DNA from: Nitrospirota bacterium
Lineage (GTDB): Bacteria > Nitrospirota > Thermodesulfovibrionia > Thermodesulfovibrionales > UBA6898
Assembly (NCBI GenBank): GCA_004321925.1
Contig: SCQH01000040.1
Location: forward strand, 1-64,000
DNA length: 64,000 nt
Direction of reading: 5' to 3'
The notes beneath the pieces are model-generated. The model ran no database searches and was not told the DNA's origin. It saw only the letters and a program-made list of their open reading frames with translations. The translations under genes were made by a program, and so were the position numbers. Position 1 is the first letter of the stretch. Each line of letters starts with the position of its first letter. Below are positions 39,574-63,807 of the stretch, one piece after another.

Positions 39574-39580
39574 CTGGAGC

Positions 39581-42737: not shown

Positions 42738-42759
42738 TATTACGTCCCCTGGAGATTAT

Positions 42760-44202: not shown

Positions 44203-44216
44203 TGCGTAGAAAATAT

Positions 44217-44235: not shown

Positions 44236-44238
44236 CTC

Positions 44239-44267: not shown

Positions 44268-44274
44268 ATAGAAA

Positions 44275-44556: not shown

Positions 44557-44568
44557 GAGGTGAGAAAA

Positions 44569-44874: not shown

Positions 44875-45245
44875 GCTGTGAGGAATACCGTTCAGATGAA
44901 TGGGTGCTGGGTTCCTCGACCTTCATAGAAGGGATTTTGCGGGAAGCTGAAAGGCAGGAAGAGAAGAAAAGGGAAGAGGTAACCTTAAAAACACTGATCA
45001 GTCGTATCGCTGAGGACAGGGATATCAGTGAAGAATCAATGACCAGTGCGGGGAGAAGCAGGAAAGTGACGCAAGCGCGGGCGGCGCTGGCATACGTCTG
45101 GCTGAGATACCTTGGCCGGGCATTTTATCATATCACGACTACGGGGTCATATCACGACTACGGGGTCATATCACGACTACGGGGTCATATCACGACTACG
45201 GGGTCATATCACGACTACGTATCACGACTACGGGGTCAGACTTGA
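44871..45245 (+). pseudogene. RAYT transposase C-terminal relic running into tandem repeats
   Basis: The first 80 or so codons read Trp-Val-Leu-Gly-Ser-Ser-Thr-Phe-Ile-Glu, an Arg/Glu-rich helix, Leu-Ile-Ser-Arg-Ile-Ala and then Thr-Gln-Ala-Arg-Ala-Ala-Leu-Ala-Tyr-Val-Trp-Leu-Arg-Tyr-Leu-Gly. This is the C-terminal part of REP-associated transposases, which carries a DnaA-like helical domain. From about 45125 the frame enters 19-base tandem repeats and is no longer RAYT. The catalytic part is missing. The open frame alone (124 codons) could still be expressed. Confidence 0.7.
45128..45235 (+). repeat. tandem array of a 19-bp unit
   Basis: TCATATCACGACTACGGGG occurs four times in full (from 45128, 45147, 45166 and 45185), followed by two shortened copies (45204-45219 and 45220-45235). 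Units are identical, hinting at recent slippage. The array ends with GGGGTCAGACTTGAC, also found at 12761. No spacers, so not a CRISPR. Confidence 0.95.
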
Positions 45246-45393: not shown

Positions 45394-48300
45394 ATGCATG
45401 AAATATATCACTATCATGACCAGGTGAAACGGATAGTACATAACCTGGCACAGACCTTTATCGCGGTCATGCTGTCTGCGGTACCGGTATCGTCCGCTGC
45501 CGGTGCGATTGATCAATTTGCCGCCAAAACAATTGGTGATCACGGGAACGTCACGGTCATGGAGGTGACGGGCACTTATGACGAAAAAACCCCCGACGGC
45601 ACCGTCAATGCCGGACCCCGGCAGATAATCTCAAAGGAGTTCTACCGCCTTCATAAGGATGAATATGACTTCCTCGTCATCTTTTCGAACTTCAATTTCA
45701 GGCTGTCGGACGGAACGATCGCCTTTTATCTGGGGGCCAGGAACGACACACGGGGCATCGGAAATGAACTGTTTGATAGTTCGCTTCTTTTCGGCAGCAG
45801 CAGGCTCCAGGGGACGATCGACATGGGAAATATCGCGAACCTGTCGATGGTCCCTACAGATCCGAAGTTTCAATTCACCCTCGACACGATCAGCCACGAG
45901 ATGATGCACCGCTGGGCCGCCTACGCGCGGTTCAGGAATCCCGACGGCTCGCTTAACACGGGACTGCTTGGCAAGGACGGCAGTCACTGGAGCTTTCTGC
46001 TCAGCACCGATGCATCGCTCATGTATGGTAATACCTGGCAGGACAACGGCAACGGGACCTTCACATCCGTTCGCGCAAGAAAATACTATAGCCCGCTTGA
46101 CCTCTACCTGATGGGGTTCATTGACAAATCGCAGGTCCCCCCGATGCTGCTCATCGACAACCCTGATATCGATCCGAAGCGGGTATCGCAGGTGGGCGTA
46201 ACCATATCCGGGACCCCCCGTTACATTACAATCGACGACATAATTGCTGCAGAGGGTGAAAGAGTGCCTGGACCTGCCGAGGCACAAAAGACGTTCAAAA
46301 CAGCGTTCATTTTTATAACTGAACAGGGCACTTTTACCGGCGATGAAATATACGGTCTTGAAAATGTCAGAAACGGCTGGCTTACCCGATACTCGGTCCT
46401 TACCGACGGCGCCGGACTCGTCCAGGTGGCCTTATCACCACTAGACAATCTGCCGGTAAATCCAGGCGTCATTCCTCCTACAGTGACTCCGAGGACACTT
46501 CCGCCGAATATAGATGACGCCGTAACGTGGATAAAGAATGAGCAAAAGTCTGACGGAAGCTGGATGGATCTCGGGCAGACGGCAGAAAGGGACACGGCAG
46601 AGGCCGTTGTAGCCTTGAAGGAGTTCGTTGCTGCCGGACCCAACTATTCGACCGGCCTGCAGTGGCTTGGTGGTCAGTCGTCCGGTTCAACAGATTATCT
46701 GGCAAGGACAGCTGAGGCGCTGGCGGATGCCGGGCTGGACACTGCATCCCAAATGAGCGAGATTGCCTCACGACAAAACAGGGACGGGGGATGGGGAAGC
46801 GGAAAGAGTTTTGCCAGCAGCCCCTCTGATACCGGTCTTGTACTTAAGATGCTTGCTAAGACCGGCTATACCGGTCAGCCTGTCATAGCGAAGGCAATAG
46901 AATATCTTAAGGCAAAACAGAACCCCGACGGAGGCTGGGGCAACGAAGAAGGCAGCAGGGTGGAGACAACGGCGAACGTGCTCTTCGCCTTCAGGAAGTA
47001 TACTGCAACCTATGCATTGGACGACCGAATAGCTTCAGGAAGTTCCTGGCTTCTGCAGCATCAGAATCCTGACGGCGGGTTCGGCAACAGTCCAAGCACG
47101 GTCTATGATACCGCGCGAGCGCTGCTGACCCTTGCCGAGCTTGATATTGCCAAGGACAGCAGAAATAGGGCCATAGGGTATATTCTCCAGGGTCAGTCCG
47201 GTGACGGCAGCTGGCGGGATAGCCCCTATCAGACGGCCCTTGCAATCGAGGCCCTTTACAAGGCCACCGTCGATCCCGATTTGGCGGTGAAGGCCAGTGA
47301 TCTTAGTTTTTCACCGGCGACGATCGCGTCACTTCCGAGTAATGTTGTCCTTAGCGCGAACATTGCAAACCTCGGAAGGACGGCAGTGCCTCAGGCCAAA
47401 GTTGCCCTTTATGAAAACATCTCCGGATCTATGGCCAAGCTGGCTGAACAGACGGTATCTTTCCCCGGCAGATCGACAGTGACGGTATATTTCCCAATAT
47501 TATTTGACGACGAGAGCAGCCGCACGTTTTATATCATGGTTGACCCTGATAACCTTGTGGCCGAGTCTGACAAAGCAAACAACACGGCTTCAAGGAATCT
47601 TCAGGCAGAGGCCGGCATAATGCCTGACCTTGCAATCACCCCTTCAAGCATTTCATTCGTCCCTCAAACAATCGCGGCCATTCCATCAACACTTGCCATA
47701 AATGTCGATGTTGCCAATTTGGGTTCATCAACGGTTCCACAGGCAAAAGTGGCGCTTTACGACGGGGACGTCTCCGAAGCAAACAAGATTGCTGAACAGA
47801 TCGCGGCATTCCCCGGCAGGGGAAATACCACAATATCCTTCCCTGTAGCCATCACAGACGGACGTGAAAGGGTCTTTACCGTGGCTGTCGATCCGGGCAA
47901 CCTCATCAAGGAGTCTGACAAGACCAACAATATGGCGGTTCAGCGAATCAAGCCGGTTGCGTTCACAGAGCCGGACCTATCAATCTCTTCAAACGACATA
48001 ACCTTTGCGCCTTCGACGATCGGGGCCATCCCATCCACCGTCACCATAAACGCGAGAATAGCCAATTTCGGTAAAACTGCGGCGCAGAGCTTTAAGGTGG
48101 CCCTTTATGAAGGAGTGGTATCGGACGCAAGCAGGATCGGCGAGACAACTGCTTCGGTCCAGGGCGAAGATTTCGTTGTCGTGAGCTTTTCGACCACGGT
48201 AAATGACGCCAGTGATCATAAATATATAGTGTCCGTTGATCCCGATAATCAGGTCCCGGAGTCCGTAGAGACGAACAATACAGCCTGGAATGTGCTTAAA

Positions 48301-51300
48301 AACAGTCTTGTCTATGATTTCGAGGTGCTGCAAGGTAACCTGTCAGCTTTACCGAACCCGGTCGATCTCGGGCAGGATGTGACAATAAGCGCGAAGATAT
48401 CAAATAAAGGCAGGCAGAACGCCTATAGCGTGCATGTACGATATTATCTCGACCTGCCCGGGGCGCCTTTGGATATCGCTACGACCACCGTGGATATCCC
48501 GGCAGGCGGGTCGGTCAGCGATCAGGTTACCTGGAAGACGAGCAGGCCCGGTCCTGACCTGCCTGTTACTGTCCATGTCGATCCCCTTTCCGAGTTTATA
48601 GAAGTCACGAAAGCGAACAACAAGGCCGCAATATTGCTGACAGTAAACGGCCCGACCGATCCGAACCTGACAGTCTCCTATAAGGACATTGTGATAACTC
48701 CGAACCCCGCACAGGAGAGGGGCAACGCGAACATCTTGGTGCTTGTGAAGAATGAAGGGTTCTCGGCAGCGTCAAACGTTCTGGTGAACTTTTACGAGGG
48801 AGTGCCGGGCGTCGACGGCGTGCCTTTGGGCTCGCAGACGATACCTTTGCTGAATGCGGGGGATAGTGCAAGAGCGTCGATCGATTGGGTCGGCATAAAG
48901 GATGTTGGGAAAAAGATCATATACGTTAAAGTCGATCCGGATAATGCGATAAGCGAGACAAGCAAGGACGACAATACGGCATTCCTGACCCTCCAGATCC
49001 TTACACTGCCGGACCTGGCGATCTCGACCAATTCCATCGTATTTAACCCCGTTGCTCCGAAGGACGGCGACCCCGTCAGCATTAACGTGACGATCAAGAA
49101 CCTCGGAGAGCAGAGCGCCTCCAACGTTCTTGTGAAGGCGTATGAAGGCAGCACAGTAATCGGGTCTCAAACCATCTCCGGAATTACCGGCAATTCCCAG
49201 GCAGCAACTTCTTTTTCGTATGACACAAACGGGAAGAACGGGCCCCACCAGATCACGGTAATAGTCGATCCCGACAATACGATAGTCGAACGCATCAAGG
49301 AGAACAATACCGCTTCGAGGACCTTCGGCATCCGGGATGCCAAACTCTGGGTAACCGAGCAGTATATCTCTCCCAATGGAGATGGTATAAAGGACAGCAC
49401 ACAGGTTTTCTTCGGCCTCGATGCTTCGCAGACAGTAAGGGTCCTCATTGTCAACGAAAAGGGCGAGACCGTAAGGACGTTCAGCGGGACAGACCTTGAG
49501 AATGCCACCGGAGGCAACGTTGTCTGGAACGGGCTAAACGACAACGGCTCGGTCGCTGCCGACGGCCAATACCATATCAGGGTGACGGATATGAACGGAA
49601 ATATCCTCGGAAGCCTGCTCGTCACGCTCGACAACAACCGCTCGCCCTTGAGCCGGGCACTCGGCACAAAATACCTTCTGAATAGTAACCTGACCTGTAA
49701 GCTGCCTGATTTCAGTGAATGGAAGTGGCTGCCCAGTGAGAGCGGAATGATCTTCAGCATAAATTATGCAGATGCAGATGCGGACGCTTCGGGATATCCG
49801 CCAGGACTATATTCCATGGCCCCTGACGGGGAAGATGTCATCCGCCTTGTACCGGACAACACAGTACCCTATGAATGGGCTATTGAAGCGTTCGATCTCT
49901 CGCCCGACGGGGAAAAGATAGCATTCATAGCAAATGACAGACTGTGGGTGGTTAATTCTGATGGGAAGCAACTGACGATGCTTGATGAACCCTCAAGCGG
50001 TATATATGACGTCAGATGGTCTCCTGACAGAAAACATCTTTTATATACTGTAGGGCAGATCCGCAATCAGCAGGGATATTCAGCCTATGAACTCTGGATA
50101 GTTAATGCGGAGACTAAGGCAACGACGAAGATCGACTGGGGTTTTCTGACTTTCGGGTTGGGGGCTGCCGAGTGGTCGCCAGACGGTCAGCATATCACCT
50201 ACCTGGCATTATCGGACAGCATGCTGCAGCAGTACCGGCAGGTAGACGAATTGAAACTGTCGGACCTGGCGGGCAACAAGTCGGTCATTCATACCTTTGA
50301 CAGGACAACATCGTATACGCAGATGTACTGGCTCGACAGAGCCAAAATAGCCTTTCAGCATCCCTCACAGTCCAATCAGCTATGGGCGTATGATCTGACC
50401 GGCGGAGGGCACCATCTCTTTATATCTGAATATCCCGATCAGGTCGTTCAAAACCCCGACAAAGGAGGCATCACCTACAGGGAAAGACTGAATGATAGGA
50501 AGATCTATGTGAGGACTGTTAATGCCGAAGGCTCGATATCGACGCACTATGAAGCGTCGGATCTGCAGGTAAACAGCGGTTCGGGCAGTACCGGCAACCT
50601 AAGCAATTTGATATGGTCTTTTGACGGCAGGAAGATTGCCTTTGCCGACATGACATATAAGAAGATTGATAAATGCATATATGAGCCTGCCCTGATCGCT
50701 CTTGACGCTCCGTCGATGAAGAGAAATGGCCTTAAAATATTTAATTCAGAAGTTGCTTATGCTCAGGAAGGCTATCCGTACAATTCCGACTGCGCTGACC
50801 CTAGTAAGTATGCGCTCAATAACGTCGAAAGCATAGCGTCATGGCTTCCGGATAATGAGAACCTGCTGCTTCTTGATAATAAAGGGTACTTCGACTTCAA
50901 TACCACGACGGGTGAAAAGGGAGGGTACATACCTATTGACGGAGTTGAAGCAGTGTCACCCGCCGGCAGGTATATAAATTATTATCGTGACGCAGACCCT
51001 GCCGGTATCTGTTATGGCAGGGGATGGCCGGATGTATGGGCGATCGGGTCGATGCTTAATCTGACCGCTGACCTGAGAATAAATAAGGAAAGATCCCTGA
51101 TCAGACTGAAGGGGATCGCCGCAGATCTGAATTTCGAAGGATACAGGCTGGAGTATTCAGATGCAAAGACCCCCGATAACTGGAACCTGGTTGGGCCACC
51201 ATCTGATATGCCGGTGCTCAATGATCTGTTTACGACATGGGTGCCGCCCCATGAGGGAGCTTTTTTCCTGAAACTGACCGTCTGGGACAAGGCCGGCAAC

Positions 51301-54300
51301 ATCGCCATAGATAGAAAGAGGGTTTCATGGGGGCTTTCGGCAGCCATTACGAACCTGTATAAGACTAGGGAGATATTCTCCCCCAATGGAGACGGACTCA
51401 AGGATACGGTGGAACTCCATTATACGGTCCTTGAGCCGGTACATCTGGATTTCTTCATTTATGCTGAAGACAATAGTATTGTCAGGACGCTCAATCGGGA
51501 TCATACGTCTCACATGGATGACTTTATTACATGGGACGGAAGGGATGAATCCGGCAGGATCGTTCCTGACGGGAAATATACGATCAAGTTGTTTGACTAT
51601 GAATTCTTTGTCGAGGTCGATAATACCCCGCCGGACGCAAACCTCATGTTGACCCCTGTCGTACTCGCTAAAGACGACGCAGGGTACCCGGCTGTTTCTT
51701 CAGAATTACGCGGCCATGCTGTTGACAGGAATTTAAAAAAGTGGGCAGTCGAATATGGCGAAGGCCTTAACCCTTCCCAGTGGGTTTCGTATGGGTGGGG
51801 AGTTTTTCAGTTGACCGATACCGACCCGCTGGGGAATCCCCTCCTCAACCCTCCAACCGATGTGTTACTGGAGGGATACGTTAATAATGGGTTGGAGTTC
51901 CTTGTCGGGAAGAAATTCAGGGTTGTTGCAGAAGACGCGGCAGGCAATCAGCAGACTGCGGTTACGGATATGATCGACGAAAGATTGTTTTTTAATGACT
52001 GGGATGGCACTTCAATCATTGATGAGGTGCCGGCGCATCTCCTGCATCCCGGAAGGCATATGCTTGGAGGGCTGGAGACGATACAGAATCCGGTCCATGC
52101 GCTTTATGTTCAGTACAGCCAGGAATATGATCTCAAAAAAGGAGGGTGGATAAACTGGATAGACAGTGAGCCCAAGCTCGACCCGGCATCGGGGAATTTA
52201 TTCATAGAATGGGATAACAGTCTCATAGATTTCAAGCGGCTCTATGCGATCCGCCTTAAGGCGATCGACGATAAAGGTGTTGTATTTTACTCAAACATCA
52301 TGCCCGGCAAGGAGAGATACGGTCTTCAGGTTGGCTGCAGCAGTAACATCGACAAAGGCGTTCTTGTCCTGGAGGGTAATATCTCATTGTACCAGCCGTT
52401 TAAACAACTGAGGTTCCAGGCCAAAAGCCAGGACGATTCACACTTCGCCCAGTGGACTGATATTGAGCTTTTGTATGGTGAAGCCGGTGGTGCTTTATTT
52501 GGGATCAAGGTTCTGCCTGATCATGGGGTCGAGATTCCGCAGGGTCAATTTGTGGTCGGGGCCGACAGCGTTGTCGGTATAGTCATGAATCAGTTTAGTC
52601 CGCATATGCGATATACGTTCCGCATGGTGGGCACGTTTGAAGACGGTACCGAGAAAGAAACCATTGAGGCTCCCTATCCGCCCAAATGCGACGCGGTTGT
52701 CCTTGGGATCTCAGTCAGTTATAAGGACGCTGATGAGTGCCAAATGATTTCGGGGAAGGCATCAATAGGCGCAACGGCAAGTTATAGTAGCGCCGTTGTT
52801 TCGCCGATATCTCTGAAATTATATCTCAATGATGTATTGGTGGCGAACCCGCTGGAGAATCTGGATACTATCTCCATGCCTGAGGGAACCCATCCAATCA
52901 GGGCAGAGTTCGAGTATATTGACCTGTCCGACGGAGAGGTCAGGATGGCAAAAGCTCAGGACAGGCTGATTGTTGATCGAGCTCTGCCTGCTGCTGAGAT
53001 AACCTATCCCACCAAACCGTTACGTATCTGTCCTGTGAAGGTTCCTGACGTTAAAGGCGATTGGTTTGGTCTTCCGGTAGAAGGCATTGCCTCAGATAAT
53101 ATGGCCATGAAGCGATATGAGCTGTCTTACGGCATCGGGGAGAAGCCGTCTGTATGGATCCCGGCAACGACGCAGGTAAAGGGGAAAAAAGTTCCCATAA
53201 CCGGCGACCGCCCTGTTGCGGGGCGTCTGGGGATCTGGGATATCACAGATCTTAAGGACACGGATTATTCGTTGAAGCTCAAGGTTCTTGACGTTGCAGG
53301 CAATGCTGGCTGTTATACGACCAACTTTGTCGTGGACACGTTGATCGAGGTCACGGGGCTGAATTCCGACAGACATATTGTCTCCCCGAATGGCGACGGG
53401 ACAATGGACGATGTTACAGCCAGCTATCAGATAGATGAATACGCCACGGTTGCTGTTAAGGTATTTAAGGCCTCCACGCACGCCGACGGCTCTTATGTCC
53501 TTGACTCGACCCCTGTCAGGACTATTGCCTCTGGGATTCAGCATTTAGGGGGAGCGGGCACTATAGTGTGGGATGGCATGGGTGATTCCGGCAGCGCCCT
53601 GCCGGATGGATCGTACGGGATCGCGGTCATCCCGACCGATACTTGCGGCAATACGAATATGAAATGGGTGCTGGTTGAGGTTGACAATACTCCGCCGACA
53701 ATGGTTATTACCTATCCGCGTTCCACCGATCCTATCGGTAATGTTGTTGAAATCAGAGGGACCGCTAATGACCCTCATTTTCTGTCGTATTCCCTTGAGG
53801 TGGGCGAGGGAGACATCCCCATTGCCTGGCTCCCTATTTCATCAGAAGCTTCCCCCGTAAATTACGGGATCCTGGGTATCTGGAACACCTTCGGACTTCA
53901 GGGCAGGTGGACGCTGAAACTTTCCGGAGCCGATACGGTTGGCAATAAGAATGAAACAAGTGTCAGCATCGATCTGGGCACAAGGCAGGATCTTATAAAG
54001 AACCTTAATGTTCTCCCGAAGCTTTTCTCCCCCAATAACGACAATAGACTTGATACGACAAATTTCAATTATAATCTTACCGGTGCCCACAGCACGAAGA
54101 TCGAGATAATCGATTCGAGCGGGACGGTCAGAAAGACGTATGCGACAACCGCACCGTCCGCCGGAGCATATATGTACCTGTGGGATGGCCGCGACAGTGC
54201 AGGTATCCTGGTTCCTGACGGTGCCTATATCATTAAACTTACCGCTGCCCTTTCTTCGAACCCTTCAGTGACCCAGACAGAGACCGTTACCGTTGTTGTG

Positions 54301-57300
54301 GATACGACACTGCCTCTCATAGATATCAAACAGCCTATAATCAATTCATATATCAAATCCAATGCCGTTACAGTGTTCGGCACAACCAGTGATGTCAATC
54401 TGGCGGAGTATTCCATCACTAATACCGGGGAAACCGGTACGGCGCCTGTCGATGCTGCCAGCCAGAGCAGGGGGGACTACGTTTTTGGAACACTTAACGA
54501 TCTCCCTGAGGGGACCTATGCGATGAATGTGAAAGCGAAAGACCTTGCCGAAAACTCAAGCGAAAAGAACATTCCTTTTACCATCGACAGGACACCGCCG
54601 AAGGTCACGCTCGATGCTCCGAAGGACAGAGAGTTCTACGGTAACATCAAAAACGTCATCAACGCGACGGGCGGCATAGTGGAGAGGAACCTCGAAGGAT
54701 ACAGTCTCAGGTGCGGCCTTGGCGACAATCCGACACTGTGGACGGTATTACAGAGCGGGAATGCAGTACCCGTTAACCCTCAGCTTTTCAGTTGGAAGGT
54801 CGGAAAGAACGATGCAGTTCCTGATGGCCTCTATACACTTTCACTTTATGCAAAGGACAAGGCAGGCTGGGAGCGCGAGGCGAAGGTCAAGGTTACAATA
54901 GATAATACCCCGCCGGATGTTTCCATAGCTTCGCCTAGAAATGGGGATTATGCCAAGGCTGCAACAGATATCAGAGGCACGGCCTTTGACGCCAACCTCC
55001 TGAAATATATCCTGGAAATCTCCGCCGGCCCATGCGGAAGCGCCTTCAAATGGGCCCCGCTTAAGATTGCAACCAATTCCGTGAAAGACGGGTCCCTCGG
55101 TTCACTTCAGGCCCTGCCGCCTGACGGGAATTACTGTCTGAGACTTACCGCCCTGGACAAGGTCGAAAATAGCTCGATGGTCATGACGAGTGTGAAGATT
55201 GATACCACGCCTCCTGCTTCACCTGTGCTTTCCGGCAAGGTGGAGAACAAAAAGGATGCGAGACTTACATGGACCGCCAGCACGGAGTCTGACCTCGCGG
55301 GCTATGACCTCTACCGGGACGGTCAGAAGATCAACTCGACATTACTCAAAGATGCCTTGTATCTTGACCAGAGCCTGAAGGAAAATGTTTATGCATATGT
55401 TGTGAAGGCTATAGATCTTGCGGGCAACGAGAGTAAACCCTCAAATGAGATCAAACTCAAAATCGATCTCACCGGGCCCGACGCAGCGATCCGGTCGCCG
55501 CAGGACGGTGCAAGGATCGGTGGCATAATTGACATCAAAGGTACCGCATACAGTATCGACGATTTTAAGGAGTATCGGGTCTTTATAGGAGTCGGCGAGG
55601 CTCCGTCTTCATGGATGCTCAGCAGGACATCCCCGCTTTCTACATCCTATGGCATATTGGCCCAATGGGATACCCTTGGTCTGCCCGAAAATGCCGTCTA
55701 TTCGATCAAACTCGAGACCGAGGACCTGAGCGGCAATATCAATACAGACCAGATCAAGGTGGTGATCGATAACCTTCCTCCTGCTCCACCGGTGCTTGTC
55801 ACGGCGGTGCCGAACGGTTCGGATGTGACTCTGACATGGAATGCCAACACGGATACTGATCTTAGCGGATACCTTCTGTACCGCAACGAGCAGCTTGCCA
55901 ATGTGGCAGGCATAGTTGTCGGCAATCTCAAGCCCTACCTCATGACGGCTACGGCATACCCCGACAAGGCCCTGCCGGACGGAAAGTATAAATACTACCT
56001 GATAGCTATGGACCGGGCAGGTAATATGAGCGGCCAGTCAAACGTGCTTGAGGTGACTATTGATACCCATCCTCCGCATACGATCATTACGGAACCTCGG
56101 GATAAAGCGAAGTTCGACAGGAAGACCATGCTGAAGGCAGAGTCGCCGGACAACGATATTGCAACGGTCAAATTCCTCTATAAAAAGGCTGTGGACACGA
56201 CCTGGACAAACCTGGGCGACCCTATAACAAAACAGCCTTTCGTAACATTTATAGACCCTGCAGCCCTTGCTCTGTCATACGCCGATTATCAGATCATGTC
56301 AGTCTCGACTGATATGGCGGGGAATGGTGATCCGTCTCCTGCATTCATCACCCTTACCTATACTGACGTGACACCTCCAGCTACAGTTCAGAACCTGAAG
56401 GCCGCGACCAACGGGCAGGATGTTGCTCTGACCTGGACGGCAGATACCGCGGCCGATCTTGAAGGATACAGCATTTATAGAATATCCGGAGGCTCAAGGA
56501 CGAAGCTCAATGCTGCGAAGACCAAAGAAATATCCTATCACGATAGGGGTCTATCCGATGCTACATACACCTATGAAGTCACGGCATCCGACTTAGCCGG
56601 CAATGAAAGCAAGGCCTCAAACCAGGCCATGGCCCGGGTGTATGCGCCTGTTATTACTCAACCTTATACGCCTTCCGACAAGAGTGTCATACAGCTTCAG
56701 TTCGAGAATGCAACTCCAGGTTCGTCCGTTGATCTGTTCAACGATAGCGGTTCGGGACCAGTGTCACTGGGAACTACTCAAGCCGGTACGGCCGGAACAC
56801 TTACGTTAAATCTGTCCCTGTCATCCGGCGAGAACAGGTTAACCGCGAAAGCAACTGATCAGTCGGGAAACATAAGCAGGGGTTCGGACATGGTCATGGT
56901 TGCCTACAGCATGCCGCCTGCTGCGCCGACCGGACTTGTCGCAAGCGCACAGGGTCATGACGTTGCGCTTACCTGGAACGCTAATGTCGAAACAGACATT
57001 GCCGGATATAATCTATTCAGGAACGGCGAAAAGCTCAATGCCCCTGCAGCTGTTGCCGCCTTGACCGGCAGCGCCTCTTCATCCTATTCCATCTCTCCGG
57101 CTGAAAATGCACTGGACGGGCAATGGTGGACCTACTGGAGGTCTGATTATGGCTCTGTGCCATTCAACCCTGTCTGGTACGAGATCGACCTGGCATCAAG
57201 GGAACTGATAAACAGCTTAAGCATCCAGTGGCTCACAACGAACGTCGGTAAGGATTACGAGATCCAAGCATGGTCGGGCTACGCATGGATACCAATCCAT

Positions 57301-60300
57301 AAAATGACCGGAAACACGGTGACCACGAATCATATCGATATCAAGCCGTCCTACAGGACGGACAAGTTGAGGATCCATATTACAGACACGACAGATAAGG
57401 AATATTACAAGCGGGTCGATATATCCGAGATCACGTTGTTCAGGGACGTTCAGCTGATCCAGCCGACATACAACGATCTTGCGATTCATGACGGCGCGTA
57501 TTCATATGCCGTGACCGCCGTCAATTATTACGGCTTTGAAAGCCCTCTATCTGCTGAAGCAATGGCCGAAATCGGGGATGTTACGCCGCCTGCTATACCG
57601 CTAAACCTTTCTGCCACTGTGAGCGGGACCGATATCAGCCTGAACTGGACGGCAAACACAGAGGCCGATCTTGCCGGTTACAATCTTTACAGATTTTCGC
57701 CGCAGGGCTGGACCAGGCTTAATACGGGCCCCATACTTGATACGACGTATATCGAGACGGGGCTGCCTAACGGAACCTATAGATATAGACTTGCTGCGGT
57801 CGACACTGTCGGCAATGAAAGCCTGCCGTCGAATGAGGCGACCGCTGTTATTAGTGTGACTGACACGATCGTTCCACCAAAACCGGCGCTTTTCTACCCT
57901 ACCGTGGCAGGGCTTCCAATTGTATTGCAGAAAGGCAAGACCGATGTCATCGGGTTTGCCGGGGCGGGCTCTACTGTCACGCTGTCCAGGTCCGGGGTTC
58001 CAGTTGGCACCACAACAGCCTCGGCTAGCGACAATATCAGCTCAGTCTCTATTGAAAGCGCCTGGAGCTATGCATCGCCCTCACCGGATGGCAAGACCCT
58101 TGTCAACGTCGACAGCTATAGTTCAATCTGGGTAAAGGACCTTGCAACGGGACAGATAAGACAGGTAACCCCATATGGTTATGCCCCGGGTTGGTCTCCT
58201 GACGGCAGCAAACTTTCCTATGAATACTACGAAGACAGGAATGGGTTTGGGAACTTCTTCATTGGTGTCTACGATCTTGCAACTGGAGTAGCTACAACTC
58301 TGGTCAATGAAACGAGCGAGCCATTTGTCGACGAGTTTGCCGTCTCATGGTCATCTGACGCGAGCAGGATTGCCTTTGTCAGATATGAGGGGGGTTCTTA
58401 TAATGCATGGGTCAAGGATTTTATATCCGGAGCGCTTAATCAGGTTACGAGCGGTCCTGAGCCTTATTACCCTAAACTGGCACCGAACGGAAACAAGCTC
58501 GCTTATATAGACTCGGCAACAGGAATTCTTTATGAAAAAGATCTCAGTACTGGAGAAATCATCCTTGTTGCTGAGAATCAGGACGACGATAATGTCAAAT
58601 GGTCTTTAGACAGTAAAAAGCTGCTGTTTATCGAAAATGATGGACAGAGAACCGATCTGTACCGTTACGATGTAACAACTAGGAACAAGGCCAGATTAAC
58701 GGTGACGGATACTACTGAACTTTTTGCATCATGGTCACCTGACGGAACCAGTATCATTTTTGGTCAGAATGAAAGCGACGGGAGCATCTCGGTCAGAATG
58801 ATGTCCGCGGACGTCCAGGATAGCGGCAGAGCTCTCCGGCAGAATATGCCTGGTCTCAATAGCCTCTCGTGGTTAAATTCAGGAGATATTTTCTTCATGG
58901 ACGGACAGGTATTAACAATTTTACGGCCCAAAGGGTACTTCAACTTCAAGGACATTCCTCTTGATGCTGGGGAGAACCTGTTCAATGTTGTAGCAACCGA
59001 CTCATCCGGTAATCTCAGCCAGCCCTCTGACGAGATCTCGGTCATACTGGAGACAAGCCAGCTGCCGGACCTTGAAACAACAACTGATGATATCTATCTC
59101 TATCCCGCAGTACCCCTGGCGGGGCAGACCTTGGCGATAAATGTCGTGGTCTGGAACAGGGGTCTGTTGGCGGCGATGGATGTTCAGGCAGATCTGTACG
59201 TTACCGATTTTCAGGGGAATATGTCGCTGCTTAAGTCCGTGGTTATCCCCAGTATCGACCCTGAGTCAGCCGAGATTGTGGGTGCTAATTGGGATACTAC
59301 AGGTAAAACCGGCGCTGCTCTGGTGACTGTTGTCCTCGATCCTCTCGGTAAAATATCGGAAGTGACGAAATCGAATAATTATGCAGTGCTGGACTTTGTC
59401 ATGGTCGATACAGAGGGAATTCAGATGACGACGTCGTTGAATTCCGATCAAATGCAGGCAAAGAAGGATTTACGTGCGGATATCTATATTGTCAATAGCG
59501 GGATACGCAAGACCGGAAACCTTGAGGTCTCGGTCGAGGACGAGCGCGGCTATCTTGTATCTGTGCTGTACTCCGGTGGCATTGATCTTCCGTACGGTTA
59601 TCAGAGGCATCTCGACCTGACCTGGAACTCCGGTTCAACCTTTGCCGGTCCCTATAGAGTGCATTCCTTGTTGAAGGACACCTCAGGCGTTTTGGCCGAA
59701 AACGTCGTCTCATTTACCATAATGCCCGATATCGCGGTGAAGTCCTCAATCGTTACCGACAAGGCCCAATACGGTCCCGGTGAGAACGTTTCATTGAGTT
59801 ATACCGTGGAGAACAGCGGATCAAACTATATTGTCCCTGACATGAAGGCTACGGTGAGGATTCTGGATCCTCTCAATAAAGAGATGTTCAGGGAAGAAAA
59901 AGATATTGTCAACACACTGCCGGGCGCGGCAAGTAATTTTAACGCGATATGGAACGCAGGGCTGAACGTGCCCGGTACATACACGACTGTTATCGATGTG
60001 TCGATGAACGGAAATGTCGTATCAACAAACTCCGCAAAATTCAGCATCTCTGCAAAGGCAGAGATTACCGGAGGCATAAAAACGACGCCTGCAGCCGTTA
60101 TCTATGGGAACCAGGTAGTCATTGACTACTCGGTTACAAATGCGGGAAACAGCGACAGGACAGGGATATTGTTAAGAGTCCTCGTAATGGACCCCGCAAC
60201 CCAGGCCATTGTGAATTCGTCTGACGAGACCATTGACCTTGTCATGAAAGGGACCCTTTCGAGGCAGACCGTGCTGTTGACCCAAGGTCTGGGCTTGAAA

Positions 60301-63300
60301 ACCTATGTCGTAGTGCTGCAGGACGTTTCCCCAAGTATTACAAAAACCTTGGCGAACACCTCCTTTGCCGTCATTGACGGAGTTCCGCCAACGATCGGTA
60401 TTAATTCCCCTGCTTCGGGCGCATATTTCAATGCGCAGATCGACCTTACGGCAGTCGCTGCAGACGACATCTCCGGCATCGATAAAGTGTGGTGGCAGAT
60501 CGACGGAAGAGGGTGGAAACTATTGCCGGTCGCAGATACCCAGTCCGGCAGGTATTCAGCAGCTTGGACGCCGATAAAGGCTGATGAAGGGCCGCATACG
60601 GTAAGTTTCAGGGCCGTTGATAGATCCGGGAATCAATCCGCTGCCGTCAGCGCTTCCTTCACGATCGACCTGACCCCTCCGGACTTGGCCATATCGACTC
60701 TGTCAGACGGCGCTAATACGAATAACTCAGTGCTGAATATAGCTGGGACAGTGACCGACAATTACGGAGTGCGCGAACTCTTTGTTAACGACATCGCCGT
60801 GCAGAACAATTCCGATGGGACATTCAGCTATCCCATAATTCTCAACGATGGTCCGAATACGATTAACGTAACGGCTCGGGACTTAGCCGGCAACGAGACG
60901 CAGGACGCCAGGACGATTAATCTGGATCTGACCGCTCCTGTGATAACGATACTTACGCCGGCGGACAACATTAAGACGAAGCAAAACCCAATGGATTTAT
61001 CCGGCATGGTCGATGAGCAATCGACGGTAACAGTCAGGATCAACGGGGCCGATCCCGTCCCTGCTGTGCTGGACGGCAACAATTTCAGCCTGTCGATAAT
61101 ACTGGTTTATGGGCTTAACACCATAGAGGTGACTGCTACAGATCTTTCAGGCAATACATCTTCCGCGAAGAGGACCCTGACATTCGATGACAGGACCCCA
61201 GAGCTTGCGGTCACCGACCCGGCTCAGGATGTCAAGACGAACACGCCGGATATGACTGTCAAGGGAGACGTAAGTGATATTTCGACAGTTGCCGTTACGA
61301 TAACGATGGACGGCAACACATATTCTCCTGGCATGGCTGGTGCGGGGTTTGAGCTGCCGATCAGATTTACGACGGAAAAGCTCTACCAGATCTACGTTAA
61401 GGCAACTGATGAACTCGGGAATGAGACGATAGTACAGAGAAACGTTATATATGATGCAACAGCCCCAATGGTGACTTTAGACACAGTGACAAGCCCCACG
61501 AGTATGGTAAGCCAAATAGTGACTGGCACCGTTGAGGCAGGGGCATTCGTCAGCATTGCATGTCCGACAGCGAACGTCGGCATAGTCTCATATCCTACGC
61601 CCGAGACATGGTCAGCAATATTGTCGAATATGAGCGAGGGGATACATGTGATAGAGGTTGCTGCCACTGACGATGTCGGCAATACAAGCCAGACTGTCAG
61701 GGGGGAGATAGTTGTCGATCTGACACCTCCTTCGGTAACTATTGCGGCGCCGGTAAGCGGAACTACTCATAATGGCAAGGTTGACCTTATCGCAATTGTA
61801 TCGGATAGTGGGTCTGGTGTCGAAAGAGTCGAATACCAGATCGACAGCGGTGACTGGAAACCTCTGCCCGTGTCGGATGCTGCACAGAACAAGTATTCGA
61901 CCGTCTGGGTAACTGTCCTTGCTGATGAAGGGACACATACCATCAACTTCAGGGCAGCTGACAGGCTAGGCATTATGAGCAGCCCGATATCAACCACCAT
62001 CACTATAGAAGTTTTATCCGGCACTATCAAGGCGACACCCGATCCTGTATCAAGCGGTCAGGAGGAGACACTTTCGTACAACATAACGAACGCCACAAGC
62101 GGGGATATCCCGGGTCTGACCGCCAGGATACTGATACTTGATCCCGATACCGGGGTGACTAAACAGACTTACGACCAGGTACTTTCCATCCCGGCAAACA
62201 CGGCTTTCGCCGGCAGTGTAAAGGCCCCGACGAAAGACCTTACACCAAAGAGATATAACGTCGTTCTTCAGGTCGCCGGCGCAGGTCTGCCGCTGCCCAA
62301 CAAGGAGCTCTCAAGAACGACATTTGAAGTTAAAGCAGCGCAAAATCCGGGCATCGAGATTGAAAAGACGATGCCAGATGTCAGAAATGTGCTGGTCTGG
62401 ATCAACGACGAATGCCAGTCCGAGACCGGCACAAGGTATCCGTCAGGGTATTTCGGCAGCAATACAGAAGATGTCGGATGCCTGGAAAACAAAAGAGATA
62501 GGCTGTGGCTAAATGATTCTAACTCTCAAGAAGGTGATTCAGGAGACAACGAAGATTCCTCAGGAGCTGATAATGATTGCAGAACGTGCACCAGGCGCGA
62601 CCTTGTCGATAGGGTCCTGAGCGAATCGGCCACGAGTCACGCAATCGTTTACTCGGCGCAAGACTTCCAGTATGAGATAAGAAACCCATATTACACGGAT
62701 ATTTTGATCCTCGGCAATCAGTATCCGCTGGAAGACCACTCTTGGGAAGAACTAAGGGAGAAGGTCAATATGGGGGTAGGTCTGATATCTTCACTATGGA
62801 TAAAGCAAGCAGCTGATGAGAAGAATGCGCCAGAAAACACGATGCTGGGATGCCGATACAAAGGGACAGTGCCTGGCAGGGATCATGAGATCCTTACTGT
62901 CCCGAGTCCGGTGACCGGGGCTGGCAGAATTTATTCGAAGGGAATAGCGGAAAAAATCGAAGCCCCAAAAGGGGCTGTCGTTGCCGGCTGGCTTGAAGAT
63001 GGTGCATGTGACGATGGAAGTAGATATGATTACCGGATAAATTGGCATACCGAAAACGGACCGAAACCATCGTGCGAGAGCCCTGCCATTGTTCTTAGCG
63101 GGTATGGCAAAGGAAGGACGGTATTTCATGCCTTTGATATCGGGAAGACCTTAAATGACAACACGTATTCCCAGGTAGCAGCCCTTATACAAAATTCACT
63201 GTCATACGTTCACAGCGTCTCAGACAGCAGCACCTTCGGACCACGCAGCCTTGTCCCCATAGAGATTCGCATCAGGAGCCTCGGCAGCGCCTTCGACCTT

Positions 63301-63807
63301 AAGGTTTCAGAGTCCTATCCGGCGGGAATCAAGATATATGATCCGACCACCGGCGCGTGGATCACTGCAAACCCATGGATCAACCGCCTGAAACTCGGGG
63401 CGGGCGAGACAGCGGCGGTTCTTTATTATGCCCTTATGCCAGACAGTGGCGGTACTTACACATTAAAGACCGACATAAGCTATCTCGAAAATGGTGCATA
63501 CATTCCGCTCAGGAGTATTTCCAGGGACCTTGTGGCCAAAGACCTTAAAGCCGCCCTGTCGGACGTATTACGCGCGTTGGACGAGCTGGATGCCAGGGAT
63601 AGTTCGGAAGTAATCAGCGCCAAAAGGATGCTTCAGCTTATGCTCCGGCGCGGCTCAAAGACACGGCAGGCTATGGAAACAAATATTCGGAGCATACTGG
63701 CGGCCATAGATTCCGTGATAAAGGTCGATTCCGACACCTCTTCGGTAAGGGCCATGCTGGATGAGATCCTTAAGGGTCTGGAAAGCAGATATTACTTTGC
63801 GTATTAG
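45394..63807 (+). CDS. giant modular secreted protein (6137 aa)
   Basis: One unbroken frame. The signal peptide looks best from the GTG at 45424 (Lys-Arg, hydrophobic core, Ser-Ser-Ala-Ala-Gly-Ala); the ATG at 45394 adds ten odd residues. Modules by residue: metalloprotease-like region with His168-Glu-Met-Met-His; prenyltransferase/squalene-cyclase-like alpha repeats (about 369-623; Pro-Asp-Gly-Gly-Trp-Gly); six CARDB repeats (about 628-1314); TolB-like WD propellers (about 1433-1890 and 4220-4513); FlgD-Ig repeats with Ser-Pro-Asn-Gly-Asp-Gly or similar at 1326, 1996, 2664 and 2879; five Fn3-like units (about 3273-4160), one split by an F5/8C-like domain (about 3889-4016); a seventh CARDB and Ig-like repeats to about 5640; an acidic run (5707-5728); a GATase-like domain; a helical C terminus. 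Likely a surface adhesin or protease. No sorting signal seen. Confidence 0.85.
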   Translation: MHEIYHYHDQVKRIVHNLAQTFIAVMLSAVPVSSAAGAIDQFAAKTIGDHGNVTVMEVTGTYDEKTPDGTVNAGPRQIISKEFYRLHKDEYDFLVIFSNFNFRLSDGTIAFYLGARNDTRGIGNELFDSSLLFGSSRLQGTIDMGNIANLSMVPTDPKFQFTLDTISHEMMHRWAAYARFRNPDGSLNTGLLGKDGSHWSFLLSTDASLMYGNTWQDNGNGTFTSVRARKYYSPLDLYLMGFIDKSQVPPMLLIDNPDIDPKRVSQVGVTISGTPRYITIDDIIAAEGERVPGPAEAQKTFKTAFIFITEQGTFTGDEIYGLENVRNGWLTRYSVLTDGAGLVQVALSPLDNLPVNPGVIPPTVTPRTLPPNIDDAVTWIKNEQKSDGSWMDLGQTAERDTAEAVVALKEFVAAGPNYSTGLQWLGGQSSGSTDYLARTAEALADAGLDTASQMSEIASRQNRDGGWGSGKSFASSPSDTGLVLKMLAKTGYTGQPVIAKAIEYLKAKQNPDGGWGNEEGSRVETTANVLFAFRKYTATYALDDRIASGSSWLLQHQNPDGGFGNSPSTVYDTARALLTLAELDIAKDSRNRAIGYILQGQSGDGSWRDSPYQTALAIEALYKATVDPDLAVKASDLSFSPATIASLPSNVVLSANIANLGRTAVPQAKVALYENISGSMAKLAEQTVSFPGRSTVTVYFPILFDDESSRTFYIMVDPDNLVAESDKANNTASRNLQAEAGIMPDLAITPSSISFVPQTIAAIPSTLAINVDVANLGSSTVPQAKVALYDGDVSEANKIAEQIAAFPGRGNTTISFPVAITDGRERVFTVAVDPGNLIKESDKTNNMAVQRIKPVAFTEPDLSISSNDITFAPSTIGAIPSTVTINARIANFGKTAAQSFKVALYEGVVSDASRIGETTASVQGEDFVVVSFSTTVNDASDHKYIVSVDPDNQVPESVETNNTAWNVLKNSLVYDFEVLQGNLSALPNPVDLGQDVTISAKISNKGRQNAYSVHVRYYLDLPGAPLDIATTTVDIPAGGSVSDQVTWKTSRPGPDLPVTVHVDPLSEFIEVTKANNKAAILLTVNGPTDPNLTVSYKDIVITPNPAQERGNANILVLVKNEGFSAASNVLVNFYEGVPGVDGVPLGSQTIPLLNAGDSARASIDWVGIKDVGKKIIYVKVDPDNAISETSKDDNTAFLTLQILTLPDLAISTNSIVFNPVAPKDGDPVSINVTIKNLGEQSASNVLVKAYEGSTVIGSQTISGITGNSQAATSFSYDTNGKNGPHQITVIVDPDNTIVERIKENNTASRTFGIRDAKLWVTEQYISPNGDGIKDSTQVFFGLDASQTVRVLIVNEKGETVRTFSGTDLENATGGNVVWNGLNDNGSVAADGQYHIRVTDMNGNILGSLLVTLDNNRSPLSRALGTKYLLNSNLTCKLPDFSEWKWLPSESGMIFSINYADADADASGYPPGLYSMAPDGEDVIRLVPDNTVPYEWAIEAFDLSPDGEKIAFIANDRLWVVNSDGKQLTMLDEPSSGIYDVRWSPDRKHLLYTVGQIRNQQGYSAYELWIVNAETKATTKIDWGFLTFGLGAAEWSPDGQHITYLALSDSMLQQYRQVDELKLSDLAGNKSVIHTFDRTTSYTQMYWLDRAKIAFQHPSQSNQLWAYDLTGGGHHLFISEYPDQVVQNPDKGGITYRERLNDRKIYVRTVNAEGSISTHYEASDLQVNSGSGSTGNLSNLIWSFDGRKIAFADMTYKKIDKCIYEPALIALDAPSMKRNGLKIFNSEVAYAQEGYPYNSDCADPSKYALNNVESIASWLPDNENLLLLDNKGYFDFNTTTGEKGGYIPIDGVEAVSPAGRYINYYRDADPAGICYGRGWPDVWAIGSMLNLTADLRINKERSLIRLKGIAADLNFEGYRLEYSDAKTPDNWNLVGPPSDMPVLNDLFTTWVPPHEGAFFLKLTVWDKAGNIAIDRKRVSWGLSAAITNLYKTREIFSPNGDGLKDTVELHYTVLEPVHLDFFIYAEDNSIVRTLNRDHTSHMDDFITWDGRDESGRIVPDGKYTIKLFDYEFFVEVDNTPPDANLMLTPVVLAKDDAGYPAVSSELRGHAVDRNLKKWAVEYGEGLNPSQWVSYGWGVFQLTDTDPLGNPLLNPPTDVLLEGYVNNGLEFLVGKKFRVVAEDAAGNQQTAVTDMIDERLFFNDWDGTSIIDEVPAHLLHPGRHMLGGLETIQNPVHALYVQYSQEYDLKKGGWINWIDSEPKLDPASGNLFIEWDNSLIDFKRLYAIRLKAIDDKGVVFYSNIMPGKERYGLQVGCSSNIDKGVLVLEGNISLYQPFKQLRFQAKSQDDSHFAQWTDIELLYGEAGGALFGIKVLPDHGVEIPQGQFVVGADSVVGIVMNQFSPHMRYTFRMVGTFEDGTEKETIEAPYPPKCDAVVLGISVSYKDADECQMISGKASIGATASYSSAVVSPISLKLYLNDVLVANPLENLDTISMPEGTHPIRAEFEYIDLSDGEVRMAKAQDRLIVDRALPAAEITYPTKPLRICPVKVPDVKGDWFGLPVEGIASDNMAMKRYELSYGIGEKPSVWIPATTQVKGKKVPITGDRPVAGRLGIWDITDLKDTDYSLKLKVLDVAGNAGCYTTNFVVDTLIEVTGLNSDRHIVSPNGDGTMDDVTASYQIDEYATVAVKVFKASTHADGSYVLDSTPVRTIASGIQHLGGAGTIVWDGMGDSGSALPDGSYGIAVIPTDTCGNTNMKWVLVEVDNTPPTMVITYPRSTDPIGNVVEIRGTANDPHFLSYSLEVGEGDIPIAWLPISSEASPVNYGILGIWNTFGLQGRWTLKLSGADTVGNKNETSVSIDLGTRQDLIKNLNVLPKLFSPNNDNRLDTTNFNYNLTGAHSTKIEIIDSSGTVRKTYATTAPSAGAYMYLWDGRDSAGILVPDGAYIIKLTAALSSNPSVTQTETVTVVVDTTLPLIDIKQPIINSYIKSNAVTVFGTTSDVNLAEYSITNTGETGTAPVDAASQSRGDYVFGTLNDLPEGTYAMNVKAKDLAENSSEKNIPFTIDRTPPKVTLDAPKDREFYGNIKNVINATGGIVERNLEGYSLRCGLGDNPTLWTVLQSGNAVPVNPQLFSWKVGKNDAVPDGLYTLSLYAKDKAGWEREAKVKVTIDNTPPDVSIASPRNGDYAKAATDIRGTAFDANLLKYILEISAGPCGSAFKWAPLKIATNSVKDGSLGSLQALPPDGNYCLRLTALDKVENSSMVMTSVKIDTTPPASPVLSGKVENKKDARLTWTASTESDLAGYDLYRDGQKINSTLLKDALYLDQSLKENVYAYVVKAIDLAGNESKPSNEIKLKIDLTGPDAAIRSPQDGARIGGIIDIKGTAYSIDDFKEYRVFIGVGEAPSSWMLSRTSPLSTSYGILAQWDTLGLPENAVYSIKLETEDLSGNINTDQIKVVIDNLPPAPPVLVTAVPNGSDVTLTWNANTDTDLSGYLLYRNEQLANVAGIVVGNLKPYLMTATAYPDKALPDGKYKYYLIAMDRAGNMSGQSNVLEVTIDTHPPHTIITEPRDKAKFDRKTMLKAESPDNDIATVKFLYKKAVDTTWTNLGDPITKQPFVTFIDPAALALSYADYQIMSVSTDMAGNGDPSPAFITLTYTDVTPPATVQNLKAATNGQDVALTWTADTAADLEGYSIYRISGGSRTKLNAAKTKEISYHDRGLSDATYTYEVTASDLAGNESKASNQAMARVYAPVITQPYTPSDKSVIQLQFENATPGSSVDLFNDSGSGPVSLGTTQAGTAGTLTLNLSLSSGENRLTAKATDQSGNISRGSDMVMVAYSMPPAAPTGLVASAQGHDVALTWNANVETDIAGYNLFRNGEKLNAPAAVAALTGSASSSYSISPAENALDGQWWTYWRSDYGSVPFNPVWYEIDLASRELINSLSIQWLTTNVGKDYEIQAWSGYAWIPIHKMTGNTVTTNHIDIKPSYRTDKLRIHITDTTDKEYYKRVDISEITLFRDVQLIQPTYNDLAIHDGAYSYAVTAVNYYGFESPLSAEAMAEIGDVTPPAIPLNLSATVSGTDISLNWTANTEADLAGYNLYRFSPQGWTRLNTGPILDTTYIETGLPNGTYRYRLAAVDTVGNESLPSNEATAVISVTDTIVPPKPALFYPTVAGLPIVLQKGKTDVIGFAGAGSTVTLSRSGVPVGTTTASASDNISSVSIESAWSYASPSPDGKTLVNVDSYSSIWVKDLATGQIRQVTPYGYAPGWSPDGSKLSYEYYEDRNGFGNFFIGVYDLATGVATTLVNETSEPFVDEFAVSWSSDASRIAFVRYEGGSYNAWVKDFISGALNQVTSGPEPYYPKLAPNGNKLAYIDSATGILYEKDLSTGEIILVAENQDDDNVKWSLDSKKLLFIENDGQRTDLYRYDVTTRNKARLTVTDTTELFASWSPDGTSIIFGQNESDGSISVRMMSADVQDSGRALRQNMPGLNSLSWLNSGDIFFMDGQVLTILRPKGYFNFKDIPLDAGENLFNVVATDSSGNLSQPSDEISVILETSQLPDLETTTDDIYLYPAVPLAGQTLAINVVVWNRGLLAAMDVQADLYVTDFQGNMSLLKSVVIPSIDPESAEIVGANWDTTGKTGAALVTVVLDPLGKISEVTKSNNYAVLDFVMVDTEGIQMTTSLNSDQMQAKKDLRADIYIVNSGIRKTGNLEVSVEDERGYLVSVLYSGGIDLPYGYQRHLDLTWNSGSTFAGPYRVHSLLKDTSGVLAENVVSFTIMPDIAVKSSIVTDKAQYGPGENVSLSYTVENSGSNYIVPDMKATVRILDPLNKEMFREEKDIVNTLPGAASNFNAIWNAGLNVPGTYTTVIDVSMNGNVVSTNSAKFSISAKAEITGGIKTTPAAVIYGNQVVIDYSVTNAGNSDRTGILLRVLVMDPATQAIVNSSDETIDLVMKGTLSRQTVLLTQGLGLKTYVVVLQDVSPSITKTLANTSFAVIDGVPPTIGINSPASGAYFNAQIDLTAVAADDISGIDKVWWQIDGRGWKLLPVADTQSGRYSAAWTPIKADEGPHTVSFRAVDRSGNQSAAVSASFTIDLTPPDLAISTLSDGANTNNSVLNIAGTVTDNYGVRELFVNDIAVQNNSDGTFSYPIILNDGPNTINVTARDLAGNETQDARTINLDLTAPVITILTPADNIKTKQNPMDLSGMVDEQSTVTVRINGADPVPAVLDGNNFSLSIILVYGLNTIEVTATDLSGNTSSAKRTLTFDDRTPELAVTDPAQDVKTNTPDMTVKGDVSDISTVAVTITMDGNTYSPGMAGAGFELPIRFTTEKLYQIYVKATDELGNETIVQRNVIYDATAPMVTLDTVTSPTSMVSQIVTGTVEAGAFVSIACPTANVGIVSYPTPETWSAILSNMSEGIHVIEVAATDDVGNTSQTVRGEIVVDLTPPSVTIAAPVSGTTHNGKVDLIAIVSDSGSGVERVEYQIDSGDWKPLPVSDAAQNKYSTVWVTVLADEGTHTINFRAADRLGIMSSPISTTITIEVLSGTIKATPDPVSSGQEETLSYNITNATSGDIPGLTARILILDPDTGVTKQTYDQVLSIPANTAFAGSVKAPTKDLTPKRYNVVLQVAGAGLPLPNKELSRTTFEVKAAQNPGIEIEKTMPDVRNVLVWINDECQSETGTRYPSGYFGSNTEDVGCLENKRDRLWLNDSNSQEGDSGDNEDSSGADNDCRTCTRRDLVDRVLSESATSHAIVYSAQDFQYEIRNPYYTDILILGNQYPLEDHSWEELREKVNMGVGLISSLWIKQAADEKNAPENTMLGCRYKGTVPGRDHEILTVPSPVTGAGRIYSKGIAEKIEAPKGAVVAGWLEDGACDDGSRYDYRINWHTENGPKPSCESPAIVLSGYGKGRTVFHAFDIGKTLNDNTYSQVAALIQNSLSYVHSVSDSSTFGPRSLVPIEIRIRSLGSAFDLKVSESYPAGIKIYDPTTGAWITANPWINRLKLGAGETAAVLYYALMPDSGGTYTLKTDISYLENGAYIPLRSISRDLVAKDLKAALSDVLRALDELDARDSSEVISAKRMLQLMLRRGSKTRQAMETNIRSILAAIDSVIKVDSDTSSVRAMLDEILKGLESRYYFAY

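What the first reader, a model, noticed from the sequence alone, without database searches (positions are those of the whole stretch)
45394..63807. 6.1-kilo-residue secreted protein combining an HEXXH region, terpene-cyclase-like repeats and surface modules
The domain mix (HEMMH, prenyltransferase-like alpha repeats, CARDB, FlgD-Ig, two TolB propellers, Fn3, F5/8C, GATase-like end) is exceptional in one frame of 18.4 kb. It could be a giant adhesin, a predation factor or a matrix protease.
Basis: partly seen in the sequence, partly recalled or inferred. Interest (0 to 1): 0.68.

Follow-up and report, generated by a model that had tools for sequence, protein, structure and literature searches.

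The report
Giant protease-headed secreted bacterial protein
This is a real 6,137-residue secreted protein whose near-same layout recurs in several bacterial phyla, usually beside a gene for a toxin-like RHS/transglutaminase-type protein, which suggests an undescribed giant surface system in which a protease-like head and long arms work with that partner.

Summary
The frame is real: 45394-63807, 6,137 aa, no stop, no long DNA repeats. Colinear single-frame homologues of 5.4-7.0 kaa occur in independent assemblies of Nitrospirota, Desulfobulbaceae and Geobacteraceae, and in isolate genomes of Tahibacter (5,891-6,090 aa). Against a same-family homologue, 5,704 aligned codons differ 0.33/0.26/0.60 at positions 1/2/3, so the whole length is under protein-level constraint.

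Layout: signal peptide; HEXXH domain without a Pfam match (HEXXH and a later His invariant in 39/39); terpene-cyclase-fold toroid lacking the catalytic DxDD motif; CARDB, FlgD-Ig and other Ig arms; two TolB-like propellers; a discoidin domain; a ThuA-like (GATase-like) domain; a helical C-terminus.

New here: in 18 homologous loci a same-strand neighbour encodes a secreted protein with a transglutaminase-like domain that has apparently lost its catalytic Cys, and a variable tail. This fits the 'inactive-transglutaminase' polymorphic toxins of Zhang et al. 2012. A small GspC/PilP-like protein often lies just 5' of the giant. In this genome the neighbours are displaced or decayed.

Best reading: a Sec-exported surface filament with a metallopeptidase-like head, working with that partner. 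Protease activity, anchoring and toxicity are untested.

The parts
45394..63807 (+). giant secreted multidomain protein, 6,137 aa, one uninterrupted frame
   Evidence: colinear homologues; codon-position constraint
45394..45504 (+). predicted Sec signal peptide (residues 1-37; a GTG start at residue 11 is an alternative)
   Evidence: KR + hydrophobic stretch + AxA seen directly in the sequence; homologues also begin with a hydrophobic leader. No signal-peptide program was available
45505..46434 (+). HEXXH (zincin-like) domain, no Pfam family
   Evidence: 57-68% identical in 15 order-mates; no Pfam or PDB sequence match
45895..45909 (+). HEMMH motif, residues 168-172
   Evidence: H, E and H invariant in 39/39 homologues
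45985..45987 (+). His198, candidate third zinc ligand
   Evidence: invariant in 39/39; the role is inferred
46501..47268 (+). alpha/alpha toroid with squalene-hopene-cyclase fold, probably non-catalytic
   Evidence: SQHop_cyclase_C E=1.6e-17; VIA Z about 27 to terpene cyclases; no DxDD and no thioester motif
47311..49323 (+). array of CARDB Ig-like domains (six matched stretches)
49420..49599 (+). FlgD-Ig domain
49714..50790 (+). first TolB/PD40-type propeller (limits approximate)
   Evidence: PD40, DPPIV_N and TolB-type matches
51409..51591 (+). FlgD-Ig domain
53515..54249 (+). two FlgD-Ig domains (53515-53628, 54058-54249)
55249..55449 (+). fn3 / RGI-lyase-type beta domain
   Evidence: PF18370
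57070..57414 (+). F5/8 type C (discoidin) domain
   Evidence: PF00754 E=6e-10, 2.6e-10
58126..58842 (+). second TolB-like propeller
   Evidence: TIGR02800 E=1.6e-22
59065..59382 (+). CARDB domain
60388..61800 (+). run of Big_7 / Glucodextran_B / OmpL47-type Ig domains (limits approximate)
62386..63210 (+). ThuA-like (class I GATase-like) domain with an acidic disordered insert
   Evidence: model m91eb31eda269; PDB 1t0b E=1.9e-6, target TM 0.61
63223..63540 (+). Ig/MG-like beta domain
63544..63798 (+). C-terminal four-helix region, conserved in homologues
42712..43401 (+). small Ig-like protein, homologue of the gene that lies between partner and small protein in L042
   Evidence: 28% identity, E=2.5e-13; Big_2/Big_7
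45128..45238 (+). 19-bp tandem repeats; with toxin-antitoxin-like genes they stand where the conserved neighbours stand in homologues
   Evidence: sequence read

Best explanation
The gene encodes a Sec-exported giant surface or extracellular protein. Its N-terminal head is a zinc-metallopeptidase-like domain followed by a non-catalytic toroid. A very long chain of Ig-type modules, interrupted by two propellers and a discoidin domain, forms a stalk with several binding sites; a ThuA-like domain and helices close the C-terminus. Shown: the frame, domain content, invariant HEXXH plus a downstream His, constraint along the full length, and, in relatives, conserved linkage to a secreted protein with an apparently inactive transglutaminase-like domain and a variable RHS or enzymatic tail. 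Inferred: the giant acts at the cell surface as an adhesive and processing arm for that partner (holding it, cutting it, or cutting proteins of the contacted cell), and it leaves the cell by a type II-like route, helped where present by the small GspC/PilP-like protein encoded just 5' of it.
For: Intact colinear homologues of 5.4-7.0 kaa, including Tahibacter isolates. Codon-position differences 0.33/0.26/0.60 over 5,704 codons, third-position excess in every 500-codon block. H, E, H and His198 invariant in 39/39. Partner on the same strand beside the giant in 18 loci: Nitrospirota (L042, L065, L127, L128, L129), Geobacteraceae (L049, L085), Desulfobulbaceae and one proteobacterial MAG (L116-L121), four Tahibacter loci (L142-L145) and a Rhizobacter MAG (L148). 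Partner domains: Transglut_core, Big_1, RHS with Rhs-associated core and unlike C-terminal tails, alpha/beta hydrolase, phosphodiesterase. Zhang et al. 2012 (PMC3482391) describe signal peptide + inactive transglutaminase + sometimes Ig + RHS + variable toxin tail as a class of polymorphic toxins, listed under T2SS/Sec export. Small protein: T2SSC matched by 6 of 7 members, best E=4.4e-5. Five secretin-family matches in this genome.
Against: The small GspC/PilP-like match is weak (the member shown is below Pfam's cut-offs). In this genome the partner homologue is unlinked (C113) and is a short form without RHS or enzyme tail. The small protein and lipoprotein survive here only as a decayed remnant at C57, so the giant may act without them. 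No partner was found in the examined flanks of some homologues (L053, L060, L067, L075, L079). No anchor motif, immunity gene or zincin fold was demonstrated.
Confidence: 0.48

Rival explanations
1. A stand-alone giant adhesin or matrix scaffold with a metalloprotease-like head. The neighbour linkage reflects shared co-transfer of surface genes, not a joint function.
For: CARDB, discoidin, Ig and propeller content is typical of surface and matrix proteins. In this genome the giant persists without adjacent partner genes. The same HEXXH domain occurs in other FG-GAP/fn3 surface proteins without this layout.
Against: The same-strand linkage recurs with the partner downstream in some groups and upstream in others, which points to repeated or maintained functional association.
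Confidence: 0.33
2. A secreted degradative giant (predation or matrix protease) whose main job is cutting substrates, with the stalk modules for substrate binding.
For: Invariant HEXXH and downstream His; partner tails with hydrolase and phosphodiesterase domains.
Against: No match to a known peptidase family in 16 members (only a weak Reprolysin_3 hit at E=0.14 in one). Most of the length is binding or structural. The hosts as a group are not known predators (general knowledge).
Confidence: 0.15
3. Assembly artefact or pseudogene chain.
For: Some homologues are split or shortened in draft genomes, e.g. Geotalea toluenoxydans L054 (1,476 aa) and a fragment in the same-genus genome G082.
Against: Intact colinear frames in many independent assemblies and isolates, and full-length codon constraint.
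Confidence: 0.01

Closest known systems
Inactive-transglutaminase RHS polymorphic toxins (Zhang et al. 2012, PMC3482391)
   Same: The neighbour-encoded partner has the same order: leader, transglutaminase-like domain that appears to lack the catalytic Cys, Ig-type domain, RHS and a variable tail.
   Different: That paper describes the RHS protein; in the passages read it says nothing of a giant metallopeptidase-headed companion. The window's giant is not itself an RHS protein.
Giant extracellular surface proteins (e.g. Giant1-5 of Apilactobacillus kunkeei, PMC12863079, abstract only)
   Same: Several thousand residues, extracellular, implicated in surface functions.
   Different: No sequence relation was tested. 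This protein has a HEXXH head, toroid, propellers and discoidin domain and lives in Gram-negative phyla.
CARDB-containing adhesins of syntrophic sulfate reducers (PMC10553843)
   Same: CARDB and Ig modules in putative adhesins of anaerobes.
   Different: Defined there by domain words only; neither the HEXXH/toroid head nor this gene pair is described in the passages read.
Class II terpene cyclases (squalene-hopene cyclase)
   Same: Toroid fold, QW-type motifs.
   Different: No DxDD; embedded in a secreted protein.

Membership tests
Zincin metallopeptidase | HEXXH with both His and Glu conserved | tested here: met
   39/39 sequences
Zincin metallopeptidase | third metal ligand | tested here: inconclusive
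   His198 invariant in 39/39, but ligand geometry could not be inspected
Zincin metallopeptidase | zincin fold | tested here: inconclusive
   Good model (pLDDT 88), but the fold searches were filled by the toroid
Known Pfam peptidase family | match above cut-off | tested here: not met
   No match for the window domain; only Reprolysin_3 at E=0.14 in 1 of 16 members
Class II terpene cyclase | alpha/alpha toroid fold | tested here: met
   VIA Z about 27, rmsd about 3 over about 256 residues
Class II terpene cyclase | catalytic DxDD | tested here: not met
   0 of 39
Thioester (TED, alpha-2-macroglobulin type) domain | CGEQ-type thioester motif | tested here: not met
   0 of 39
ThuA-like / class I GATase-like | fold | tested here: met
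   1t0b E=1.9e-6, target TM 0.61
ThuA-like / class I GATase-like | catalytic residues | not tested
   not examined
Inactive-transglutaminase RHS polymorphic toxins (the partner, not the giant) | transglutaminase-like domain with lost catalytic residue | tested here: met
   Transglut_core matched; the expected Cys position is Asp in all 16 aligned partners, register judged by eye
Inactive-transglutaminase RHS polymorphic toxins (the partner, not the giant) | RHS repeats with variable C-terminal tail | tested here: met
   Rhs-associated core followed by unlike tails in Tahibacter, Rhizobacter and L117 of Desulfobulbaceae. Nitrospirota and Geobacteraceae partners carry hydrolase, phosphodiesterase or Ig-type tails instead, so for them this feature is not met
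Inactive-transglutaminase RHS polymorphic toxins (the partner, not the giant) | immunity gene | not tested
   no immunity search was made
T2SS GspC/PilP HR domain (small protein 5' of the giant) | Pfam T2SSC or PilP above cut-off | tested here: inconclusive
   6 of 7 members match T2SSC, best E=4.4e-5; the one member whose scores are shown is below cut-off
T9SS cargo (CHU_C) | C-terminal CHU_C / T9SS sorting domain | tested here: not met
   CHU_C hits overlap internal FlgD-Ig domains; the C-terminus is helical with no Pfam match

The most novel reading that the evidence does not exclude
An undescribed two-part secreted system spread over several phyla. A giant protein with a new metallopeptidase family at its tip and a very long multi-module stalk is dedicated to a neighbouring inactive-transglutaminase/RHS polymorphic protein, which it displays, processes or delivers on contact. 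Both are exported by a type II-like route with a small GspC/PilP-like helper.
Probability: 0.28. Interest if true: 0.78.

Novelty: new variant of a known kind. Interest (0 to 1): 0.6.

Why it matters
A protein of this size that keeps its domain order across phyla is rare, and its steady pairing with a polymorphic-toxin-like gene would give RHS/transglutaminase-type toxins, whose surface display is poorly understood, a candidate anchoring or processing partner. The head is also a candidate new metallopeptidase family. Tahibacter isolates that carry the pair make both ideas testable.

Tried and rejected
Artefact or collapsed repeats: rejected. Active terpene cyclase or thioester domain: rejected by motif. 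T9SS cargo: rejected. Alpha-2-macroglobulin-like protein: weak MG2 and TED hits only, thioester absent. Fold of the HEXXH domain alone: not resolved, because both fold searches of the two-domain model were filled by toroid matches and no further prediction was available. Palindrome 45371-45390: unique in the window, so no regulon evidence. Literature searches for the domain combination found nothing. G082 (same genus) holds only short N-terminal fragments near contig ends, uninformative.

Full report
WHAT IS THERE. A stop-free run of that length has a chance of about 10^-127 at this composition, and no DNA repeat of 40 bp or more lies in the region. The window is bases 1-64000 of a 66,011-base contig (C46) of a 3.2-Mb, 120-contig genome. 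Named homologues and the same-order genomes place it among Nitrospirota.

HOMOLOGUES. The N-terminal domain has relatives in 16 other genomes of the 149 sampled in the order, one of them (same genus, G082) only as short fragments; four of these genomes hold single frames of 5,397-6,448 aa with the domain at the N-terminus, and the window protein aligns along most of their length, mostly at 42-50% identity. A scan of named genomes gave 48 loci in Nitrospirota, Desulfobulbaceae, Geobacteraceae, Myxococcota, Gamma/Betaproteobacteria and Acidobacteriota, among others. Open frames of full size include Tahibacter aquaticus 5,891, T. harae 5,934 and T. soli 5,956 and 6,090 aa, three isolates. Against G013 (same family), 5,704 codons align at 54% amino-acid identity with differences 0.33/0.26/0.60 at codon positions 1/2/3, and every 500-codon block shows the third-position excess. 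The tree of the head and toroid does not follow phyla cleanly (Thermodesulfobacteriota and Myxococcota are split), which fits transfer, paralogy or misbinned contigs. Presence is patchy: of the three same-genus genomes sampled two have no match and one a fragment.

ANATOMY. Order: signal peptide; HEXXH domain (residues 38-347, no Pfam family); toroid (about 370-625); CARDB array; FlgD-Ig; first propeller; FlgD-Ig and Big domains; fn3-type domains; discoidin; second propeller; CARDB; OmpL47/Big-type Ig; ThuA-like domain; Ig/MG-like domain; helices. H168, E169, H172 and H198 are invariant in 39 of 39 sequences; the toroid never has DxDD or a thioester motif. AlphaFold models: head plus toroid pLDDT 88; C-terminus pLDDT 82 with a disordered acidic insert. 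Foldseek and VIA place the toroid with squalene-hopene and drimenyl cyclases and Foldseek the C-terminal alpha/beta domain with ThuA-like proteins. The HEXXH domain's own fold was not effectively tested. The same HEXXH domain also sits near the C-terminus of other surface proteins with FG-GAP, CarboxypepD_reg or fn3 domains, so it is a mobile module.

THE NEIGHBOUR. An all-against-all comparison of flanking frames found a large secreted protein beside the giant, confirmed by a 671-residue core search: 18 loci, same strand, upstream in Nitrospirota and Geobacteraceae, downstream in Desulfobulbaceae, L121, Tahibacter and the Rhizobacter MAG. In L085 and L127 it is broken into more than one frame. 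It has a Transglut_core domain and, by position, Asp where the catalytic Cys is expected (register by eye). About 1,350 residues are alike in most Nitrospirota, Geobacteraceae and Desulfobulbaceae partners; the tails then differ: alpha/beta hydrolase (L042, L049, L118), phosphodiesterase (L129), RHS (L116, L117), RHS core plus unlike ends in Tahibacter and Rhizobacter, or a short Ig-type end (L065, L128, L132). Zhang et al. (PMC3482391) define polymorphic toxins with a leader, an inactive transglutaminase domain proposed to anchor the toxin on the surface, sometimes Ig domains, RHS and a variable toxin domain, and list inactive transglutaminase under Sec/T2SS export. The RHS-bearing partners fit that class; no toxin activity or immunity gene was tested here. 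A lipoprotein-like gene of about 330 aa and a small secreted protein often stand between partner and giant; the small protein weakly matches T2SSC (6 of 7 members) and PilP (4 of 7).

THIS GENOME. The full set of neighbours does not adjoin the giant here. A short-form partner lies on C113. On C57 the end of the lipoprotein gene is followed by the small-protein gene with two stops, a decayed remnant of the usual arrangement. Upstream of the giant are an Ig-like gene related to one in L042's cluster, toxin-antitoxin-like genes and a 19-bp tandem repeat. So the gene seems to have moved or lost its cluster while staying intact (inference).

MECHANISM. Shown: sequence, constraint, motifs, predicted folds of toroid and C-terminal domain, linkage. 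Inferred: extracellular location, metal binding, proteolysis, joint action with the partner, type II export. I give 0.48 to the paired-surface-system reading, 0.33 to a stand-alone adhesin or scaffold, 0.15 to a mainly degradative role.

NOVELTY. Giant surface proteins and RHS/transglutaminase toxins are known kinds. The conserved pairing, and a HEXXH domain outside Pfam, were not found in the papers searched; that search covers open-licence papers only.

Noticed in passing
window 24503-32542: 2,679-aa protein joining multihaem cytochrome-type motifs (Cytochrome_C7, GSu_C4xC__C2xCH) with SBBP propeller repeats, laminin-G and thrombospondin-3 repeats: an unusual large surface cytochrome candidate.
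   Followed up: no
window 45371-45390: Perfect palindrome ACCTGTCAGTTCTGACAGGT ending 3 bp before the giant's ATG; single copy in the window. Possible operator.
   Followed up: partly
window 45128-45238: Tandem array of a 19-bp unit (TCATATCACGACTACGGGG, about 5 copies) upstream of the giant.
   Followed up: no
L141:3079-3578: Decayed remnants of a lipoprotein gene and the small GspC/PilP-like gene, next to toxin-antitoxin-like genes, in the window's own genome.
   Followed up: yes
L132:3812-10971: Unlinked short-form transglutaminase-like protein with a carboxypeptidase-regulatory-like lipoprotein and two more secreted proteins in the own genome; the tail motif EDGK.YSY recurs in a later gene of the cluster.
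   Followed up: partly
L056, L059, L061, L069, L086: The same HEXXH domain near the C-terminus of other large proteins; in the two scanned (L056, L059) with FG-GAP, beta-helix, CarboxypepD_reg or fn3 domains.
   Followed up: partly
window 38260-40174: Y-family polymerase-like (IMS) gene next to a Peptidase_S24 (LexA-like) gene.
   Followed up: no
window 43570-44875 and L040:3858-4480: Toxin-antitoxin-like gene pairs on both sides of the giant gene, judged by eye from the sequence.
   Followed up: no
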